Source: Bolinopsis microptera (taxonomy: Eukaryota; Ctenophora; Tentaculata; Lobata; Bolinopsidae). From it: 64,000 nt of DNA. The stretch covers positions 20,826,828 through 20,890,827 of the forward strand of contig NC_087076.1 in the NCBI RefSeq assembly GCF_026151205.1. Reading direction: 5' to 3'. The first letter of the stretch is position 1, and every line of letters starts with the position of its first letter. This document shows, piece after piece, positions 1 to 62,850 of the stretch. The notes below the pieces were generated by a model. The model did not search any database. It had not been told where the DNA came from and worked only from the letters and a program-made list of their open reading frames with translations. The translations under genes and the position numbers were made by a program.

Positions 1-318
1 AAACGTCTCACTCCCAGGGAGCATAATCGAATAATTATCGGATAGGATATCATCAGAGGTATGACCAGCATCGAAGTACAAGATAGGATTCTCCCGGACA
101 ATTAGGTCTCCGATATTCAGATCACATGTCGCAAAAAGTCCCAACCCTTTGCCGCTTGATTCCTTTATCTCAAAAGGATTGCAATTTAATTTATGGTTTT
201 TCCAGTCCTTTACCTGGCAATCCCTGCAGCAATACCGCACTTTACAGCATTTACCGCATTTCTTTGCGGTTGTGCTACCGCAAGTTGCGCAGTTGTTGTC
301 TAAGTCTTTCATATCCAT
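1..318 (-). CDS. SMYD-like SET/MYND protein, 5' end only (runs off the left edge)
   Basis: The minus strand reads 106 codons from an ATG at 318 to the window edge without a stop. It opens with a MYND zinc finger: the CATCG pair, then KKCGKC, a YCCRDCQ block and WKNHKLNC. The start of the SET domain follows (GKGLGLFAT, then ENPILYF). SMYD proteins are lysine methyltransferases in which MYND sits inside a split SET domain; the substrate here is unknown. The protein is closely related to the genes at 1710-2932 and 29645-30871 but diverges after ILYF (DAGHTS instead of EGGSNI), so it is a distinct paralogue. A second in-frame ATG lies two codons downstream; I chose the outer one. The rest of SET and the post-SET region lie outside the window. 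Confidence 0.8.
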   Translation of the reverse strand, partial: MDMKDLDNNCATCGSTTAKKCGKCCKVRYCCRDCQVKDWKNHKLNCNPFEIKESSGKGLGLFATCDLNIGDLIVRENPILYFDAGHTSDDILSDNYSIMLPGSETF

Positions 319-532
319 AACGTCCTATAAGTGAGTATAAATATGTGATATTTGCTAGTGCTACGTACATATTATCATATCTTGCGTGTTTAACCGTCCA
401 AATAAATCATTTGACGCGCAAGACCAAGACAACATGTAACACATGATAACTATTTTATAATGTATAAGTTATAGTTCTATGGTCTCGTCATCATCAGTAG
501 TGTCTGGCTTTCATTTACCCAAATACAAAAGT

Positions 533-13300: not shown

Positions 13301-14368
13301 TTTAGCGAACTGAGGATTAGAAAACGTAGTGCCGATAAAGTAGAACAAATTATACGAAAAACTTTTAATATTCAAAAAATAAACTACGTAGCTAGTTTCG
13401 CGTGACCCAAAGATTACAATTAATGTAATCATTGATTCAAGGTTCTTCCACCGTCAACATTGATTATTTGGCCAGTTAAGTACTGATTACTAATCACAAA
13501 GTCCACTGCATTCCCAATATCCTCCGCGCTCCCAGTTGCTTTAAGCGCAGTCTTGGCCACAACATCCCGTTTGTACTCCTCACCATGTTTCCCCTGGATC
13601 CAGGATATTGCTCCAGGACTGACCCCATTAACCCGTACTCCACTCCGTCCCAGCTCCAGAGCTGCAGACTGTGTCAAGGCTATCAGTGCAGCCTTGGATA
13701 CCGAGTAAGCGGTGTGATGTAGGAGAGGCCTGGTACCGTGAATATCACAGATGTTGACAACACAGCCTTTGTTGGGTGCAAGGTGCTTTGTTGCTGACTG
13801 GATGAGGAAGAAGGGGGAACTAAGGTTTGTCATCAAGATCTTGCTCCAAACCTGAGAGGAATAAATGGTTCGGTATTTACCAATCATAAAAGGGCATTTG
13901 AATTTATTCAATGATCAAAAATTCAGGGTTTTGGGCATGTATTATTACATCCTGTTGGTTTACAACAAGCAAAAATAGTAGCAAATCTAGACTTTTCAAA
14001 ACCAATTTTCTTGCTTTTTCGCCTATATATAATTATTTCTCTGCACGACCAACTTAACTAAATAAGCCTTAAATATAGTGTTAGTAGCAGAAAAGTTATA
14101 CCTCTTGATCGGTTGCAGAGAAGTGTGTCTGGTAGGAAAACAGAGCATTATTCACCAGCACATCTAATCTACCCCACGTTGAACAACAAGATCGACAACT
14201 TTTAGTGAGGTCTCCCCGGTGAAACAGAAAATCACCGGAACAGCGAAAGACTTGTCCACTCGTGGCATCATTCAAGAGTGCCGCGAGGTCATCAGCCTCT
14301 TCCTTTCCGTTACATAGTGGATGGCAATATTATAACCGTTACGGTGGAGTCATGTGGCGAGTGATCTA
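13300..14368 (-). pseudogene. Inverted, broken duplicate of the pteridine-reductase part of the fol gene
   Basis: This segment is the reverse complement of about 15980-17160. It keeps the same intron position and intron sequence. The second exon (13851 to 13429) is intact and almost identical to the functional copy: VWSKILMTNL, NICDIHGTRP, AYSVSKAAL, RVNGVSPGAI, NVDGGRTLNQ. The upstream exon part (about 14368 to 14104) is damaged: a 1-nt deletion after IAIHY shifts the frame and several codons differ. The FolB and FolK parts and the N-terminal half are missing, and no start is available. Because the intron is retained, it arose by DNA duplication and not retroposition. The partner at 16955-17085 carries about 120 bp absent here. 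Confidence 0.88.
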
Positions 14369-14369
14369 C

Positions 14370-14500
14370 CATCTTGCTAGACTAACGGAATCTTGGATTT
14401 CCGTGTTTTATAGACTGGCTGTGTCAGTCTGGATTTCCGTGTTTTATAGACTGGCTGTGTCATGACTCACACGGCTTGCTGTGTGCACGGCTTGCTGTGT
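14370..14500. repeat. Short tandem duplications
   Basis: A 34-bp unit containing GGATTTCCGTGTTTTATAGA and CTGGCTGTGTCA occurs twice in tandem (about 14392-14463), followed by two copies of CACGGCTTGCTGTGTG. The repeats lie between the inverted pseudogene and the fol gene. Confidence 0.7.
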
Positions 14501-14825: not shown

Positions 14826-16917
14826 ATGGCAGATATTTTGGAAGTTAACAGTCTCCAAGTAAGGACACAAGTGGGATTCAGCCCCCACGAGCTGAACAAG
14901 CTCCAGGAGATCAATATCACATTCAAACTGTACACAGACACTTCAACAGCTGGGCAAACTGATGATATTCAACATGGTATCAACATCAAACCTGTCTGTA
15001 AAGAAATCATCAGCCACGTACAAGGAAAGAAATACGCGCTAATAGAGGCTATCGCTGAAGATGTCGCCTGTATCTGCTTACACAGTGGAGAAAACCTAAG
15101 GGTAGATGTGAAGATTGAGAAACCGAACGCTATCCGTTTCTCCAAGTTTTCAGCGGTCACCATCAGTCGGGTGCTATCAGATCTACCCTCATATGACGTC
15201 ATCATCTCCATCGGTTCAAACATTGAGCCTGCAATAAATGTTCCGGTAGCATTACGACAAATCTGTCAACGTGTTGGTCCTATTTCTAATATTTCAAAGT
15301 GCTACCAAACGCCAGCCATCGATTCTTCATGTTCCGAAGACAAGAAAGGGGGCAGTTTCTATAATGTTGCTGTAGAGGTTTCAACTCATTTCAACCAAGT
15401 AAAGCTGAAAGATGAGCTTTTGAGGATAGAAGATGATATGGGACGTGTTCGAGATTTGAATGACAAGTTCGCGCCACGCTGTATAGATCTGGACATATTG
15501 TTCCAGGCGAGTAGCACTCCTGCTAGTGGAGCTCAGACTTGGCTAGACGTGAAGGATATTAAACGGTTTCCTCACGTCACAGTTCCAATATCTGATATCA
15601 AACCACACTTCAAAAGTGATGCCACGGCTGGAGCGTCCATTCTTTTGCTGGCTCAGCAGCTTACTAAGTTACGTGTTCCTTAGGATTACTTCCCGCAAAT
15701 TGAGCTTGAAATTCCTGAAGGGGAATTCGGAAAGGCAACTGATGCTTGTGTAAATGAACCTGGTGTAAAACTTAATGGTTGTATCCAACAGAAGGCATGC
15801 AGCAATGATGAAAATACCGCCGATAATAAAAAAGAAAATATTAAGACACCCAAAAACAATCTGAGCGCCTCCTCCTACAAAACAACAAATGAGCTGTCAT
15901 CATGTGACACCATCAGCAAACAATCCAGTAACAAAGTAGCTCTCGTTACGGGGGGTGCCAGCAAGATTGGAGCTCACCTCAGCCACAGACTCCACCGTAA
16001 CGGATATAATATTGCCATCCACTACTGTAACGGAAAGGAAGTGGCTGATGACCTGACGGCACTCTTGAATGATGCTCGAGAGGACTCTGCTATCGCTGTT
16101 CAGGCTGATTTCTCTGCTTCACCCGGGGAGACCTCACTAAAAGTTGTCGAACAAGTTGTTCAACAGTGGGGTAGATTAGATGTGCTGGTGAATAATTCCT
16201 CTGTTTTCCACCAGACACCCATCACTGCAACCGATCAAGAGGTATAACTATTCTGCTACTTACACAATATTAAAGGCTTATTTAGTTAATTGGTCGTGCA
16301 AGAGAACTAATTATATATAGGCGAAAAAGCAAGAAAATTGGATTTGCCCAAAAGTCTAGATTTGCTACTATTTTTGCTTGTTGTAAACCAACGGGATGTA
16401 ATAATACATGCCCAAAACCCTGAATTTTTGATCATTGAATAAATTCAAATGCCCTTTTATGATTGGTAAATACCGAACCATTTATTCCTCTCAGGTTTGG
16501 AGCAAGATCTTGATGACAAACCTTAGTTCCCCCTTCTTCCTCATCCAGTCAGCAACAAAGCACCTTGCACCCAACAAAGGCTGTGTTGTCAACATCTGTG
16601 ACATTCACGGTACCAGGCCTCTCCTACATCACACCGCTTACTCGGTATCCAAGGCTGCACTGATAGCCCTGACACAGTCTGCAGCTCTGGAGCTGGGACG
16701 GAGTGGAGTCCGGGTTAATGGGGTCAGTCCTGGAGCTATATCCTGGATCCAGGGGAAACATGGTGAGGAGTACAAACGGGATGTTGTGAGCAAGACTGCG
16801 CTTAAAGCAACTGGGAGCGCGGAGGATATTGGGAATGCAGTGGACTTTGTGATTAATAATCAGTACTTAACTGGCCAAATAATCAATGTTGACGGTGGAA
16901 GGACCTTGAATCAATGA
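14826..16917 (+). CDS. FolB-FolK fusion followed in frame, after one TAG, by a pteridine reductase (PTR1/FolM) domain
   Basis: Exon 1 (14826-16241) and exon 2 (16495-16917) join in phase 0 across a 253-nt GT-AG intron. Residues ~1-117 are dihydroneopterin aldolase-like (EVNSLQVRTQVGFSPHE, then the conserved Lys in KIEKPNAIRFSK). Residues ~120-285 are HPPK-like: DVIISIGSNIEPAINVPVAL, FYNVAVEV, GRVRDL, and PRCIDLDILF with the two metal-binding Asp. Codon 286 (15681-15683) is TAG; the same frame then continues open for 326 codons. After a polar linker (~287-370) comes a short-chain reductase: VTGGASKIG, SAIAVQADFS, VLVNNSSVF, NICDIHGTRP, AYSVSKAAL (catalytic Asp, Tyr, Lys), RVNGVSPGAI. These are steps of pterin/folate synthesis (aldol cleavage of dihydroneopterin, pyrophosphorylation, pterin/dihydrofolate reduction), which animals normally lack. 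The FolB-FolK frame alone (14826-15683, 285 aa) looks complete. An acceptor-like TTCAG directly precedes the ATG. No dihydropteroate synthase is seen. Confidence 0.85.
16242..16494 (+). other. Spliceosomal intron within the reductase domain
   Basis: The donor is GAG|GTATAA and the acceptor TTCCTCTCAG|GTT; removal restores the DQEVWSKILMTN reading across the reductase. The inverted copy carries the same intron. This argues that the gene is resident in a eukaryotic genome and not a bacterial contaminant. Confidence 0.85.
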
Positions 16918-29644: not shown

Positions 29645-30871
29645 TTAATCGATGAGATCTCTGAAACAGCCATGTTTAGCAAGACTGTTCATTTTCTTAT
29701 TGTACGCTTCCTTTTTCTTCGCAAGTTTGAATTTTTCTGTCATTTCAAACGCCTTCTCCCTGTACTGCTCGTAGTTCCTAGAAATCGGAAGTAGTCTGAG
29801 TCCCAGACTAACAGGATACTGCTTAGCACCCGCGATTGTTTCATAGACATCTAAGTACGCCATGGGAAGAAAGGACACGAGATACTCACAGTTTTCCAAA
29901 ATGATGGTTTTTTCATGTGCTGCATTTATAGCACTTTCAAATTCATTTCTACTGTTGTAAAAACGAATTTCGTTATGGAGTCTCTTTAATTTTGTCCGCA
30001 TTGCATCGTCAGTAGCATGATCGGAGGTGCAAATTGAACACGCGCATTCAAATTTCCACTTCATGGACAGGATCCTTTTCCTCTCCAGATATGTGGAGAA
30101 GTCATCGTCTGCAATATAATCAGCCACCACTTCCTCTCCTTTTTTGATTTTCTTGATAGCTCTAACCTCCTTATCCTCCCTTACCGTCTCCATGAAACTC
30201 CATTCGGCGTTCGGCGAACAACTGTGGTTGATCCTAGCTATGGTAGTGTGCAAAGCTGCATCGTTTTTAGCTCCGTCATCATCTATTGCTATGCAATTTG
30301 TACCAAAGATCCGCATTGCCTTTTTCCTGCAAATGAAGATACATTAAGGGGGGGGGGGGGGGGGGGGGGGGAGGGGGGCTGAACTTATTTTCGACAAGCC
30401 GGACATGCTTCCAGAAATTATCCTAAAGAGTGAAGAACTCATTATTCCACATTGTTTTATATATATCAAAAGTCAGTTTGTTTACATACCATTCCTCTTC
30501 GACTTCATTGGAAGATGAATCCGGACAAAGCCCTCGAATCATGTCATTCCATCTCACTGGAACTGAGTCAGCTCCAGTGAGATCAAGAATCATATCCTTC
30601 TTTTCCCTACTTAGCGCCTCAAATGCTTTCTTAAACGTCTTAGGGTTCCCAATGATAGAACCACCCTCAAAGTACAAGATAGGATTCTCCCGGACAATTA
30701 GGTCTCCAACCCTTTGCCGCTTGATTCCTTTATCTCAAAAGGATTGCAATTTAGTTTATGGTTTTTCCAGTCAGTTACCTGGCAATCCCTGCAGCAATAA
30801 CGCACTTTAAAGCATTTACCGCATTTCTTTGTGGCTGTGCTACCGCAAGATGCGCAGTTGTTGTCTTCCAT
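29645..30871 (-). pseudogene. SMYD-like gene, second copy, broken in exon 1
   Basis: Exon 1 begins at an ATG at 30871 and keeps the MYND cysteines, but 31 bp are missing at about 30707 relative to copy A (the GLFATCDLNIGD part). That shifts the frame between the MYND finger and ILYF. Exon 2 (about 30326 to 29645) is open, with NHSCSPNAEW, GEEVVADYI and FECACSIC, but has drifted in its C-terminal third (KQYPVSLGLRLLPISRN replaces the NDIPPIF segment). The bases just beside the deletion match the paralogue at the window start and not copy A. Downstream use of an internal start (30677) would give a protein without MYND; I consider it non-functional unless expression shows otherwise. Confidence 0.78.
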
Positions 30872-31682: not shown

Positions 31683-32238
31683 GTAACACAAGGTTCATTT
31701 TGTGCAAATTGACTTTAAAGATTTCAATTCTGTAATTGCTCTGGGCTAGCTGCTGTCAAATTTAAACTACACCCTGACAGGTTGAGGTAGGCACAACTTT
31801 GGTTGTGATTGATGTTTTTTTGATGCAGTAAAATTATCGATTAGGGAATACTTAAATAAAAACTTTATCAGTTTATCGTTATCGACAAATAAAAATCCAT
31901 ACAATTTATATTACGGAGCTAGATCGTAGATAGATAGTAGTATAGATGATAACAAGAAACTATAACATAACTGATTTTAAATTTCCGGATGTATAGGTTT
32001 GAGGAAGCCTATGAGCTAGGTAAGCAGATAACTTAGTGTTTACCATGTTATAAAGTTATAAGGCACAATACTCATACTCGAAAAATAAAATCGTACAAGA
32101 AAAATGTATGGTCAGGAACAGGTTGTAATAATACGGAATATTTAAACTGTCCCTTTGATCACGAATCAATACGAACAAAAAGGTAGATTGATTACAGCGT
32201 GAATATGAGGTATATAAGATGAGCTATAGAAATGAATA

Positions 32239-33800
32239 AACTCATTAATTAAAGAATACTTTAATAATGAGTTCAATGACAAAGATGAACCCCACCTCCC
32301 AGCATTCATAGACCCTCCTGGAAGCCTCCTCTGTCCCATAACACCTGAAGAAGTTGGCCGTGCTGTTATGAAGCTGAAATCCGGTAGAGCGTGTGGCCCT
32401 GACGGTATACCTAATGAGCTAATGAAAGCTGCTGGATATCCCCTCCACTGTGAGTTGGCTAGGATCTATAATCTCTCCTTTGAGACCAACACATACATCC
32501 CAGCTATTGGAGAAGGTATCCTGACACCCCTTCAGAAGCCAGGAAAACCCCGAGGTCCGATAAAGTCTATCCGGCCCCTCACATTGCTAAATGGAACTAG
32601 AAAAGTCCTATCCCTCGTAGCCTTGAACAGAATCAATTACCACGTTGATATGTACACTGGACCTTGGCAGGCGGCATACAAGCAGGGTCGCAGTTGTGCT
32701 GACCTGGTATGGTCTCAGAGAATGTTGACATCAGTGGTTACCAGGCGCGAGTTTGAGTATAGTAAAATCAACATCGACATGACCGCTGCGTTTAATACTA
32801 TCCGCAGACAGACCATCATCAACCTCCTCATTGATGCAGGATGCTCTAGAGACGACATTCGCCTAGTTCAGTACCTCCTCTCAAATACAAAGCTCAAGGT
32901 GACGGTCAACAGATCTGAGTCTGGTGAATTTGTGATTAATATTGGCGCTTACCAGGGAGACAGTCTGGCAGGTAAAGTGTTTACATTGACCCTTGCCGGT
33001 GCCCTGAATCACATCAGAGCCGTGATCAGTGTCACGATTCCTAGACCGAACCCCCCAGTCTCTGATAGAGGCCTCCCGTTAGAGTCCGCCTATGCTGACG
33101 ATGCTGAGCTTCTGAGTGAAGATGGTCAGAGCCTGGTGAAGATACTAGAGATTGCCAGTGATATACTAAAGGATTGGAGTCTCTTTGTTAACGAATCAAA
33201 GACGGTGTTTACAAGAGTGTATTTGGCAGATACAGATGCTTTAGATTTTAGATGACCTTGGCAATAAAATCTGAGGAGGATGAAGAGTGGGCAGTGTGGG
33301 AGTCAGTGGCTATTAGGATCAATGATACTTGTTCAGAAAGAGATATTCGTCAACCAGACAAACAAAGCCAATGTAAGCCTTGTACAACCTACAAGAAAGT
33401 CCTGGTTGTATAGTTCTCGTTAGATCTAGTGGAGATAGAGTTAGAATAGAAAAGCTGACGATGTACGAACTCTTGTCTCTTCAGTTGTTGTTGTATAATT
33501 GTAGCAGCGGGGATGCTCCTGAACCTAATGGCATCTCTGTCGAAGTTCTCACAAGGAAAGCATCTGAGACAGAATGCAAACACCTACGGTTTTCTCAGTA
33601 ACGAGACCTTATATTAAGAGATGTCACTGTAGGACCCCAATTTTCTGAATGGATTCAGAGAAAGCAAGGTGCGAAGATGCTTGGGCACGTTCTAGAAGCG
33701 GTGTGATGACATCTCCCCCGACTTTCTCTATCTTTCAGATTTGCCATCGTTTAGGTTGTCTCGACTACAAAGGAGGAGGGAGGGGCTGACCCGTTCAAAT
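32239..33800 (+). mobile_element. 5'-truncated LINE with reverse transcriptase
   Basis: A frame open from about 32245 to 33255 encodes the LINE reverse transcriptase: GRACGPDGIPNELMKAAGYP, IRPLTLLNGTRKVLS, AAYKQGRSCADLVWSQRM, INIDMTAAFNTI, GAYQGDSLAGKVFTL and YADDAELL, the last being the catalytic motif (YADD). After the stop at 33255 the C-terminal part continues with frameshifts (ILVQKEIFVNQTNKANVSL near 33325, LLLYNCSSG near 33490, ARCLGTF near 33675). The endonuclease is missing, as usual for 5'-truncated LINE insertions. The left edge coincides exactly with the end of the segmental duplication. It differs in sequence from the LINE at 22.9-26.0 kb, so it is another family. Confidence 0.85.
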
Positions 33801-57409: not shown

Positions 57410-58100
57410 GTGGTGTTCTGTCAAAATTTGTGTTTTCTGTATATTTCAACTTTTTGATCTAAGGGGACTGGTTTTTGTATAAATAAATGATATATAATGC
57501 ATACTTTCGTTTTGTTTAGCTTTCTGCTGTGGGCGTTTATTTCCACCTATATTCTTTTAATTCATGCTCCTACTAATCGTGTGTCATTTGTTTATATATT
57601 GGTTGACTTACTTATTGGTTTTCTTTTGCATGTGTGAAAAATAAAGAAAATATTATAATTATAAATTTATGTCATAACTGTTTAATATTTCGGCGTTGTC
57701 ATGCGGATATTGCTTCTTCAAAAACTGGATAATTGGTCCAGTTATTGGGGTAAATAAGGAATTGTTTTTTTGCTACTTTTTTATTATTATTTCGGGATTT
57801 TTGACCCTCCAATACTCATTTGGTTTCATACCACTCAATCACCATATGTATATTGACTAATTGGGTTCATGGGCAAAAAAAGTTTCATCCAAGCTGTCAA
57901 TTTTGTTTTCAGGAATTTCATTTTTTGATAATGGGACAGGTTTTGAAATTGCAACCCTTTTCGTTTTTGGTTAAGCTTTATGCTGTGGGCCTTCCTCGAC
58001 CGCCCGAAATCAATTTCCAAGCACATCAAATAGTGTCATTTGGGGATCTATTTTTGAGACTTACTTATTGGTTGCAGGTGAAAAACAATCAGTAAAAACC
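57410..58100 (+). repeat. Dispersed ~430-bp tandem unit, second cluster
   Basis: Continuation of the repeat seen at 53085-53815 on the other side of the inverted-end element. It leads directly into the (CCCTCT)n tract, as the third cluster does at 61215. Confidence 0.7.
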
Positions 58101-58111
58101 TCGGTAAATCC

Positions 58112-58568
58112 CTCTCCCTTCTACCTCTCCTCACTCACTCTACCTCTCCCTCTCCCTCTCCCTCTCCTCTCCCTTCATCCCTCTCCCTATCCATTCCTCC
58201 CTCTCCTCATCCTCTCCTCTCCCTCTCCCTCTCACTCTCCCTCTCCTCTACCTCTACCTCTACCTCTAACCTCCCTACACTCTCCCTATCACCTCTCACT
58301 CTCCTTCCCTCTCCCTCTCCCTCTCCTTCTACCTCTCCATTTCCCTATCCCTCTCCACTATCCCTCTCCATCTCCCCTCCTCTCCTCTCCCTCTACCTCT
58401 CCTCTCCCTCTCCCTTTCCCTTCCCTCTCATGTTCCATAGGTTTCAAGGCTCTATGTGTCACCCTCTACCCTCCTCTCCCTCTCCTCTCCCTCTCCCTCT
58501 CCCTCTTACATCTCCCTCTCCGCTCTCCTCCTCTCCACTCCCTCTCCCACTACCCTCTCCCCTCTCCC
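58112..58568 (+). repeat. (CCCTCT)n tract, first
   Basis: About 450 bp of CCCTCT/CTCTCC repeats with irregular interruptions. The long Pro/Leu/Ser frames here (and Arg/Glu/Gly frames opposite) are products of the repeat and not genes. Confidence 0.9.
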
Positions 58569-59690
58569 TCTCTGAAAGAACAGTAAAGATTAATAGTATT
58601 GTATGTATAACTATAAGCTTATTAGAGGCGTGGTCGTGTTATAATATACAGCAAACCTAGCCGCCTAGAGCTCTTGTGGATACACCGTTTTCTTGGATAA
58701 CAGTGCTTAAACATGATCTATATTATGCCTAGTAACCTCTGTAACATAGCATTAGCACTTAGTCCAACCAACAAGGGCTTCAGAGAGGCTATGGAAGAAT
58801 CGCGATCGCGATTGGTGGATTGTAGCAAGTACATGTCCCAGGCCTAATGGTAATGTGGACCTTTTTCTTAGCATTAGCCATGTGAATGAGTGCGAACTCT
58901 CTCCAAGGTGGACACTAACTACTATGTTCACCTTTGGACTTAGCGTTCAATTCCTTAGCTCTCCAAAGTTTCACACAATCGTGTCCGTAGAAGGGTCGTG
59001 AATGACAAGATGAAGATGAAACTATTGCTTCGAAGAGTTCCACATTCACAATGGTCAGGCACCAAGGAAATCTTGACCATCTTGATCACTGTCTATTCAG
59101 TATCTGCCTTTTGGGGGGGGGCGGGGGGCCGCTGCTGCTGCGTAAATGGTATGTTTCTTTGTTTACCTATTCGACGTAATTTGAACGGAATTGTGTGATT
59201 GTGAATCAAACATATAAATTTTACGTCTTTACCTTAATTAGTCTACTGTCTCTTTAGATTATAGAATTGGGGGACTGGTCCGGGAAACTACTCGATGTGT
59301 AGGTTCGGATCAACCTGGATAGTATTTCCTTCAGTGAGTCATATGAATTAAAAAAGGATATGGAAACGGGAATAGGACATCATATATAAAAATAGAATAA
59401 GAAACATTATTATAAATTATAAAAAATCATTCAGACTTCTTTTATAAACAACATAAATACTAATTTGAAGTTTGCCGGCTCATATTAATTTTTTTTTATT
59501 GCAGGAACTACTGGAATACTTATGACTGGTACAGCTTAAAATACCGGGAGGATCCGGCTTAAAAACCGGAGAAAACACCACTGACCGAGAATGATATCCG
59601 GTCATCGATGGTTACTACGTTATTTAATCTCATCAGAATGTCCCAGTTTAAGAGTCTATTCTGCAGTTCCAAATTTTTATACGGGAACGG
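58569..59690. repeat. Noisy duplication, copy 1 (partner about 61830-62850)
   Basis: Follows the first (CCCTCT)n tract. Matching blocks include CCGTTTTCTTGGA, CGATCGCGATT.GTGG, TAATGTGGA.C.TTTTCTT, CATTCACAATGGTCAG, GCGGGGGCCGCTGCTGCTG and ATTATAGAATTGGGG. No intact frame survives in both copies. Confidence 0.75.
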
Positions 59691-60834: not shown

Positions 60835-61215
60835 AAAACTGTACAAATTTCGGTACGAAATTTCATCTTCAAAAACTGAAAAATGGGACAGATATTGGGT
60901 CAAATATGATTCTGCAATTTTATTCGGGATTTTGACATCAATACCTTCATTTTGGTTTTTAACTTCATCATATAACTGATAATTGGTTTCTGTGCACAAA
61001 AAGTTTCAATACAATCTGTCAATTTTTTGTTAAGAACAATGTCATATTTGAAATGGGTCTGGATTTTGAATAATACAACTTTTTGTTTTGTATTAAGTCT
61101 TTCTTGTTGTGCGGATTCCTACGACCGAAATCAAACTTCAAACACCTTCGATCTGATCACAATTTGGCATCTTTGGCTGACTTCCTTATGGTTGCAGGTG
61201 AAAAAAATCAGTTCA
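60835..61215 (+). repeat. Dispersed ~430-bp unit, third cluster
   Basis: It matches 53085-53815 and 57410-58100, and ends at a (CCCTCT)n tract exactly as the second cluster does. Confidence 0.65.
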
Positions 61216-61235
61216 AACCTGTAAACTTTCGGTCC

Positions 61236-61826
61236 CTCTCCCCTCTCCTCTCCCTCTCATTCTCCCTCTCCCTTCCCTCTCCTCTCCCTCTCCCTCTCCC
61301 TCACCCTCTCCCTCTCCCTCTCCCTCTCCCTCTCCCTCCCCTCCCCTCCCCCTCCCCTCCCCTCTTCCCTCTCCCTCTCCCTTCTCCCCTCTCCCTCTCC
61401 ATCTCCCTCTCCCTCTCCTCTCACTCTCCTCCTCCTCTCCCTCTCCTCTCCCTTCATCTCCCTCTACCTCTCCTCTCCCTCTCCCTCTCCTCTCCCTCTC
61501 CTTCTCCCTTCTCCCTTCCCTCTCCCTCTCCCTCTCCTCTCCCATCTCCTCTCACTATCCTCTCCCTCTCCCTCTCCCCTCATCCCTCTCCCTCTCCTTC
61601 CCTCTCCACTCTCCTCTCCTCCCTCTCCCTCTCCATCTCCATCTCCCTCTCCTCTCACTATCACTCTCCCTCTCCCTCTCCCTCTCCTCTCCCTTCCCTC
61701 TCACTCTCCATCTCCCTCTCCCTCTTCCCTCTCCCTCTCCTCTCCTCTCCCTCTCCCCTATCCCTCTCCCTATCACTCTCCTATCCCCTTCCCTCTCCCC
61801 TCCTCCCCCTCTACCTTCTCCTCTCT
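61236..61826 (+). repeat. (CCCTCT)n tract, second
   Basis: About 590 bp of CCCTCT/CTCTCC repeats, longer than the tract at 58112. It is followed by TCTCTGAAGAACAGTAAAGG, as in the first copy. Confidence 0.9.
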
Positions 61827-62850
61827 GAAGAACAGTAAAGGTATAATGTATAGAATGTATAACTACTAAGTATAAGAGGCGGTCATGCTTACCAATACCC
61901 AGCACCTGCACTGTGATAAATGTGAGCTCATTGTGGTACTCCGTTTTCTTGGAATGTATGTTCAACTATGATCTGTATTATTACTAGCAACCTCTGTGAA
62001 TAGCCATAGCACTTCAAGAAATCCGTTCCCACCACACAGGGCTTCCAGAGTGAGCTAGCGGAAAGACTCACGATCGCGATTAGTGGTTTGCTTCACGTAC
62101 TGTCAGGCTAACTGGTAATGTGGATCCATTTTCTTTAGCATTAGCCATGAGACTGAGAGCGGTCAATACAACTATGTTCAACCCTTTGCATTTGCGTTCA
62201 ATTCATTAGCATCTCCATTGTTTCACACAATCGAGTCCGAAGAGGCCGTGCTGTTGACAAGATGAAGGAGTTGAACTATTGCTTTCGATTGTGTTCCATT
62301 CACAATGGTCAGCCCCTATGGACTCATCTCTGTCCATCTTGACCTGGCTATCAGTTTCTCCATTGGGGGCGGGGGCCGCTGCTGCTGTACAGAAAAAATG
62401 GTATGTCTTACATGTTTACTTATCGGACGTTTTGTGACCAGGTCATTGTGTGAACGGACTTTTAAATTTTACGTATTTACACTTAATTAGTCAAATATGT
62501 CACTGTTCTTTAGATTATAGAATTGGGGACTGTCGGGAAATTAATACACGTTGTGTCGTGGTCGGATCAACATAGGATTGATTTACTTTCAGTGGAGTTA
62601 TAGAATTTATAAGGACTATTGGAAACCGGGAATAGATACTAGAAAACAATACTATAATATAAATAATCACGTCAGGACTCTTTTATAAAAAACAAATAAC
62701 CTAATTTTGAAAGGGCTGCAAGGACTTTCTGGATTTCTTATGACTGGAAGCTTAACGTATCCGGGCGGAACGGATTAAAACAGGAGCAACCTCATGAACC
62801 GAGAATTAATATCGGTACTCCGATTGTAATTATAGGGCTAAACTTCCACA
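61827..62850. repeat. Noisy duplication, copy 2
   Basis: Partner of 58569-59690 in the same orientation. The two copies differ about every 5-8 bases, mostly by single-base gains and losses. Confidence 0.75.

What the first reader, a model, noticed from the sequence alone, without database searches (positions are those of the whole stretch)
14826..16917. Animal-resident FolB-FolK-PTR1/FolM pterin module in one reading frame
Seen: dihydroneopterin aldolase and HPPK motifs fused in one frame, then a pteridine-reductase-like SDR in the same frame, with a spliceosomal intron in the SDR. Known: FolB and HPPK belong to de novo folate synthesis, which animals lack; PTR1/FolM reduce pterins. Inference: a bacterial-type pathway segment was acquired and domesticated. 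Without a visible FolP it may make a non-folate pterin or cooperate with a gene elsewhere. A three-domain fusion in this order is not one I know.
Basis: partly seen in the sequence, partly recalled or inferred. Interest (0 to 1): 0.85.

Follow-up and report, generated by a model that had tools for sequence, protein, structure and literature searches.

The report
Animal gene with bacterial-type pterin enzymes
An animal chromosome carries a gene that joins two bacterial-type folate-pathway enzymes and, in the same reading frame but behind a stop codon, a pteridine reductase; the genome seems unable to finish folate, so the locus probably serves another pterin.

Summary
Confirmed: 14826-15683 is one ORF with a FolB-type and an HPPK domain. 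A pteridine-reductase SDR (15684-16241 plus 16495-16917, 253-nt GT-AG intron) follows in the same frame. The locus is native: Wnt genes lie on the same 23.6-Mb contig. Searches found one FolB, one HPPK, GCH1, PTPS and DHFR; the Pterin_bind hits look like methionine synthase, and no PabB-type enzyme was found. The FolB domain scores nearer FolX and has Ile where seven of seven aligned relatives have catalytic Tyr54. The SDR fits bacterial pteridine reductases best. A FolB-FolK fusion in animals was published in 2014 (Branchiostoma, putatively Nematostella); I found the attached reductase in no paper that my searches listed. Vibrio folK-folX-folE-folM gene rows are a parallel. Most likely the locus makes a FolX/B-HPPK protein and a pteridine reductase for a non-folate reduced pterin. 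The TAG ends in an acceptor-like site, so the reductase may be a separate spliced product; a recent nonsense change or base error in a three-domain gene is nearly as likely. RNA data would decide.

The parts
14826..15167 (+). FolB/FolX-type (dihydroneopterin aldolase/epimerase family) domain; Glu22, Glu74, Lys99 kept, Tyr54 replaced by Ile54
   Evidence: Pfam FolB 79.1 bits; NCBIfam FolX model 70.1 bits vs folB 52.7; alignment A1; catalytic residues from PMC11328599 passages
15183..15680 (+). HPPK (FolK) domain; conserved core N180, E202, R207, R218, D221, D223 present; the usual Pro-His/Arg pair near the C-terminus is aligned with Asp-Val
   Evidence: Pfam HPPK 63.8 bits; TIGR01498 55.2 bits, cut-off 54.1; alignment A2
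15681..15683 (+). in-frame TAG stop; also the last bases of an acceptor-like site TACTAAG...TTCCTTAG|GAT
   Evidence: acceptor score reached or exceeded by 166 of 3522 AG sites of the window
15684..15923 (+). open, coding-like linker of 80 codons with no ATG and no Pfam match
15924..16241 (+). SDR exon 1: Rossmann motif TGGASKIG (Lys where pteridine reductases have Arg)
16242..16494 (+). 253-nt spliceosomal-type intron
   Evidence: GT-AG ends; continuous family alignment across the join
16495..16917 (+). SDR exon 2 with Asp-Tyr-Lys active site, ending TGA
13392..14378 (-). inverted, 5'-truncated partial copy of the SDR; the exon 1 part has indels, exon 2 is nearly identical to the main copy

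Best explanation
This is a native animal locus that makes a FolX/FolB-like-HPPK protein and, just downstream in the same frame, a bacterial-type NADPH pteridine reductase. Shown: domain content, frame, intron, stop codon, genome context. Inferred: GTP cyclohydrolase I supplies dihydroneopterin triphosphate, the FolX/B-HPPK protein modifies its side chain, and the SDR reduces a dihydropterin to a tetrahydropterin that is not folate, as in bacterial FolX/FolM tetrahydromonapterin synthesis. The FolB domain has lost Tyr54, so its chemistry is probably changed (oxygenase-like or non-catalytic). How the SDR is translated past the TAG is open. Given that it is made, I favour splicing into the acceptor-like site that the TAG ends (about 45%), for example from 14859 so that both products share MADILEVNSLQ; next a recent nonsense change or base error in a three-domain gene (about 40%).
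For: FolB and HPPK Pfam cut-offs passed. SDR fits NF006598 'pteridine reductase' at 265.1 bits, next best model 173.8. The best four PDB matches of exon 2 and the best eleven of exon 1 are named pteridine reductase. Asp-Tyr-Lys active site. One FolB and one HPPK match in the genome. Both Pterin_bind matches read as methionine synthase, judged by eye. No Chorismate_bind match. GCH1 exons at two loci, PTPS and DHFR present. folK, folX, folE and folM lie in a row in 3 of 3 Vibrio plasmid records opened, of 4 Vibrio folX hits; an SDR with pteridine-reductase motifs sits next to folB in Marinicaulis. Linker is coding-like. Exon 2 of the two SDR copies differs by 5 synonymous substitutions (about 100 sites) and 3 non-synonymous ones in 2 codons (about 320 sites), weak evidence of past selection on the protein.
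Against: No RNA or protein data. The SDR has no ATG of its own and may not be made. The donor at 14859 is no evidence by itself: 59% of 2000 synonymous shuffles of the ORF hold an equally strong phase-0 donor. Tyr54 is lost. Arg of TGX3RXG is Lys. The HPPK Pro-His/Arg pair is not kept. FolX, folB and NF006598 equivalog cut-offs are not reached. By plain identity a Ser-type SDR of a Sphingobium plasmid (39%) is nearer than Vibrio FolM (25%). A missing match in this genome does not show absence.
Confidence: 0.5

Rival explanations
1. A three-domain FolB-HPPK-pteridine reductase protein is the normal product; the TAG is a recent nonsense allele or a base error in the assembly.
For: Single stop in 472 codons of frame 0; the linker behind the TAG is coding-like; no SDR start codon.
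Against: The TAG stands right after the HPPK domain end and coincides with an acceptor-like site. No second copy of the FolB-HPPK part was found in the assembly to compare.
Confidence: 0.35
2. The FolB-HPPK protein ending at the TAG is the only product; the SDR is a decaying remnant, like its inverted copy.
For: TAG plus missing ATG; the neighbouring SDR copy is clearly degraded in exon 1.
Against: The SDR frame of the main copy is intact over both exons, with active site and splice sites; exon 2 differences lean synonymous.
Confidence: 0.15
3. A short in-frame intron 15549-15683 (135 nt) removes the TAG and joins HPPK to the SDR.
For: GT-AG ends, phase 0.
Against: Its donor ranks 9 of 50; it would remove the HPPK C-terminus that the family models align, up to Pfam position 115 of 116.
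Confidence: 0.07
4. The locus is contamination from a microbe or symbiont.
For: Bacterial-type enzymes.
Against: Position 20.8 Mb in a 23.6-Mb contig that carries Wnt exons; spliceosomal-type intron; SET and MYND domains and a reverse transcriptase in the window.
Confidence: 0.02

Closest known systems
folB-folK fusion of Branchiostoma floridae (and putative Nematostella), Maguire et al. 2014, PMC4224340
   Same: FolB then FolK in one animal gene on a native contig, no folP; orthologue transcribed in B. belcheri (passages)
   Different: no SDR is mentioned in the passages seen ('short-chain' occurs 0 times); orthology not testable here
Bacterial FolB-FolK fusions (PDB 2cg8; Fusobacterium vincentii 281-aa ORF)
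   Same: same order, two domains
   Different: the Fusobacterium ORF has a GTP-cyclohydrolase-like ORF before it and a dihydropteroate-synthase-like ORF after it (by eye); here an SDR follows and no FolP was found
Vibrio folK-folX-folE-folM gene row and the FolX/FolM tetrahydromonapterin route
   Same: same set of activities side by side
   Different: separate genes in another order; that FolM is only 25% identical to this SDR; here Tyr54 is lost
Bacterial pteridine reductase NF006598/PRK09135 and trypanosomatid PTR1
   Same: full-length fit, Asp-Tyr-Lys active site
   Different: below the curated cut-off (265.1 vs 288); Lys for Arg in TGX3RXG; stands in frame behind FolB-HPPK
Fungal/amoebozoan folB-folK-folP
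   Same: FolB before FolK in one gene
   Different: FolP follows there, an SDR here

Membership tests
Dihydroneopterin aldolase (FolB) | FolB fold family | tested here: met
   Pfam 79.1 bits, cut-off 31.8
Dihydroneopterin aldolase (FolB) | catalytic Glu22, Tyr54, Glu74, Lys99/100 | tested here: not met
   Glu22, Glu74, Lys99 present; Ile at 54 where 7 of 7 aligned relatives have Tyr; roles from PMC11328599 passages
Dihydroneopterin aldolase (FolB) | TIGR00525 equivalog cut-off | tested here: not met
   52.7 vs 72.15 bits
FolX epimerase | NF008418 equivalog cut-off | tested here: not met
   70.1 vs 152 bits, yet above the folB equivalog models
HPPK (FolK) | equivalog cut-off TIGR01498 | tested here: met
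   55.2 vs 54.1 bits, narrowly
HPPK (FolK) | conserved Asn, Glu, two Arg and two metal-binding Asp | tested here: met
   invariant in 6 of 6 aligned sequences; their roles are recalled
HPPK (FolK) | Pro-His/Arg pair before the C-terminal element | tested here: inconclusive
   5 of 5 relatives have PH or PR; the window aligns DV there, in a poorly aligned stretch
Pteridine reductase (PTR1/FolM/PRK09135) | Asp, Tyr-x3-Lys active site | tested here: met
   D140, Y153, K157 of the 244-aa spliced SDR; that Asp marks the family is recalled
Pteridine reductase (PTR1/FolM/PRK09135) | TGX3RXG motif | tested here: not met
   TGGASKIG, Lys for Arg; motif from PMC1971073 and PMC13259868 passages
Pteridine reductase (PTR1/FolM/PRK09135) | NF006598 cut-off | tested here: not met
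   265.1 vs 288 bits; best of 228 matching families
De novo folate pathway | FolP and PabB in the genome | tested here: not met
   absence from a search is not proof
Animal FolB-FolK fusion (Maguire 2014) | orthology with Branchiostoma/Nematostella genes | not testable with these tools
   no animal protein collection on hand

The most novel reading that the evidence does not exclude
One animal gene makes two enzymes from a shared first exon: unspliced message gives FolX/B-HPPK ending at TAG, and splicing into the site that the TAG ends gives a pteridine reductase, a eukaryotic stand-in for a bacterial folX-folK-folM operon. Together they make a reduced pterin not known from animals, with a FolB domain whose chemistry changed by Tyr54 to Ile.
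Probability: 0.2. Interest if true: 0.8.

Novelty: new variant of a known kind. Interest (0 to 1): 0.5.

Why it matters
Maguire et al. remarked that it is interesting for an animal to keep the first part of the pathway without folP. A linked pteridine reductase gives that remnant a plausible other purpose, a non-folate reduced pterin, and makes it testable with two expressed proteins and pterin profiling.

Tried and rejected
DHFR replacement by the SDR: suggested when DHFR_1 gave no match at E 0.001; rejected after a loose search found two collinear exons on C2, both below the family cut-off (E 0.006 and 0.41). Their sequence, with a third exon read by eye, is DHFR by recalled motifs.

Donor 14859 as proof of alternative splicing: rejected by the synonymous-shuffle control (59% phase 0, 73% any phase).

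Organism: COX1 and GFP searches gave no match; for GFP no control rang either. The species stays unknown.

Donor lineage: the one genome-contig scan gave 1 relative of 51 pattern matches, an alphaproteobacterial folB. Plasmid tblastn for the SDR reached its 5000-record limit; the top rows are Sphingobium SDRs, of which the one opened has Ser, not Asp. The viral-contig scan gave 0 of 10. No tree was built.

Literature: ten searches. Among the papers listed I saw none on a FolB-FolK-pteridine reductase gene in an animal; some lists were cut (20 of 24, 15 of 288, 12 of 31), and the library lacks most subscription papers. Seen as passages only: PMC4224340 (also outline and abstract), PMC1971073, PMC3750612 (one passage, which reports a PabBC enzyme in a coral proteome), PMC13259868, PMC3405516, PMC11328599. 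The S. aureus Tyr54 mutant acting as an oxygenase is recalled, not read; PMC11328599 passages say the M. tuberculosis enzyme has oxygenase activity as well.

Full report
Setting. The window is G000:C5:20826828-20890827 of a 264.65-Mb genome in 232 contigs; C5 is 23.6 Mb. Wnt, a family that rings in none of the 14 prokaryote controls, matches at 17 places in this genome, 10 of them on C5 itself. This is an animal chromosome. The species is not known to me.

Observation. The frame from ATG 14826 to TAG 15681-15683 encodes 285 aa with a FolB-family domain and an HPPK domain. The same frame continues behind the TAG for 186 codons to a GT donor at 16242. A 253-nt intron ends at 16494 and exon 2 closes at 16917. 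Spliced, the SDR aligns without a break to positions 7-248 of the 249-position pteridine reductase model NF006598, 265.1 bits (cut-off 288); the next model scores 173.8. So the domains and the intron are real.

Is the frame relation chance? Frame 0 of 14826-16241 has 1 stop in 472 codons; the other frames have 27 and 42 in 471. The 80-codon linker, not used in training, scores higher for codon use than each of 162 stop-free random windows, and than all but about 5 of 15,953 random windows; 20,000 were drawn and those touching known genes or simple-repeat ORFs were dropped. The measure is crude, since the linker also outscores the two enzyme stretches when these are left out. I infer that the linker has been translated, at least until recently.

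How could the SDR be translated? The TAG ends TACTAAG...TTCCTTAG|GAT, an acceptor-like site; 166 of 3522 AG sites in the window score as well or better, against 7 for the known acceptor at 16494 (weights recalled and approximate; the TACTAAG branch-like word was seen by eye and not scored). A splice into 15684 would need a phase-0 donor; the best is 14859 (CAA|GTAAGG, rank 1 of 50). A synonymous-shuffle control finds one as strong in 59% of shuffles, so this is permissive only. Trans-splicing would also fit but would have to supply the start codon. A single nonsense change or base error is the plain alternative. A 135-nt intron would cut the HPPK end.

Active sites. FolB domain: Glu22, Glu74 and Lys99 are kept, but residue 54 is Ile; 7 of 7 aligned relatives have Tyr (two of the seven are close Vibrio FolX). 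In M. tuberculosis FolB, Tyr54 and Lys99 are described as essential for aldolase and epimerase activity (PMC11328599 passages). The domain scores 70.1 bits with the FolX model against 52.7 for folB, both below cut-off; a control folB (L011) shows the reverse, 44.4 against 85.2. The two best PDB matches are FolX epimerases. HPPK: core residues are invariant with 5 relatives, but the Pro-His/Arg pair is aligned with Asp-Val. SDR: Asp-Tyr-Lys present, TGX3RXG has Lys for Arg. In the same alignment a Ser-type Sphingobium SDR is 39% identical, the Marinicaulis SDR 33% and Vibrio FolM 25%, so plain identity does not single out FolM.

Genome context. One HPPK and one FolB match. GCH1 exons at two loci, PTPS, DHFR. 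Two Pterin_bind matches at one place on C7, which read as methionine synthase by eye. No Chorismate_bind match, though all 14 controls ring. De novo folate is therefore unlikely. Searched with SDR exon 2, the genome gives 6 matches: the gene, the inverted copy next door, and four on C2 at 31-33% identity.

The inverted copy (13392-14378, minus strand) aligns from 15960 of the main copy. Exon 1 shows 23 mismatches in 274 paired bases and 11 gap columns; the intron 7 mismatches and 5 gap columns; exon 2 shows 8 mismatches in 423 bases and no gap. Such a mosaic suggests gene conversion of exon 2 (inference). Exon 2 differences: 5 synonymous, 3 non-synonymous in 2 codons, over about 100 and 320 sites.

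Bacterial parallels. folK, folX, folE, folM lie in a row in 3 of 3 Vibrio plasmid records opened, of 4 Vibrio hits listed; these are relatives, so not independent. In Marinicaulis an SDR with pteridine-reductase motifs (best model NF006597) directly precedes folB. De Crecy-Lagard et al. report folM-like genes clustered with pterin-branch genes and a FolK duplication fused with FolB in Bifidobacterium longum (PMC1971073 passages). A FolB-FolK fusion of the same order stands in Fusobacterium and in PDB entry 2cg8.

Prior knowledge. Maguire et al. 2014 (PMC4224340, passages) describe a folB-folK fusion on a native Branchiostoma floridae contig, with a transcribed B. belcheri orthologue, judged likely prokaryote-derived, and a putative one in Nematostella, and remark on the missing folP. 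So the animal fusion is known; the pteridine reductase behind it, the lost Tyr54 and the TAG/acceptor arrangement I did not see in what the ten searches listed.

Verdict. A real, native, unusual pterin locus; a variant of a known animal fusion. Function proposed: a reduced non-folate pterin, by analogy with FolX/FolM. Expression and product are untested.

Noticed in passing
window 13392-14378 (-): Inverted partial SDR copy with a degraded exon 1 and a nearly identical exon 2, a pattern that suggests gene conversion.
   Followed up: partly
G000:C2:18406072-18411106: DHFR and PTPS exons lie about 4 kb apart on the same strand, a possible pterin gene neighbourhood.
   Followed up: partly
G000:C11:9215777-9216904 and C6:10037771-10042587: Two multi-exon GTP cyclohydrolase I loci.
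   Followed up: no
window 1-324, 1713-2938, 29648-30734 (-): Repeated SET/MYND (SMYD-like) gene copies on both sides of the locus.
   Followed up: partly
window 32236-33252 (+): Reverse transcriptase ORF of a retroelement.
   Followed up: no
window 57975-58660 and 61074-61869: Long CT-rich repeats that are open in several frames and give Ser-Pro-Leu-rich ORFs, probably not genes.
   Followed up: no
L019, L022, L023: folK-folX-folE-folM gene rows on Vibrio plasmids.
   Followed up: partly
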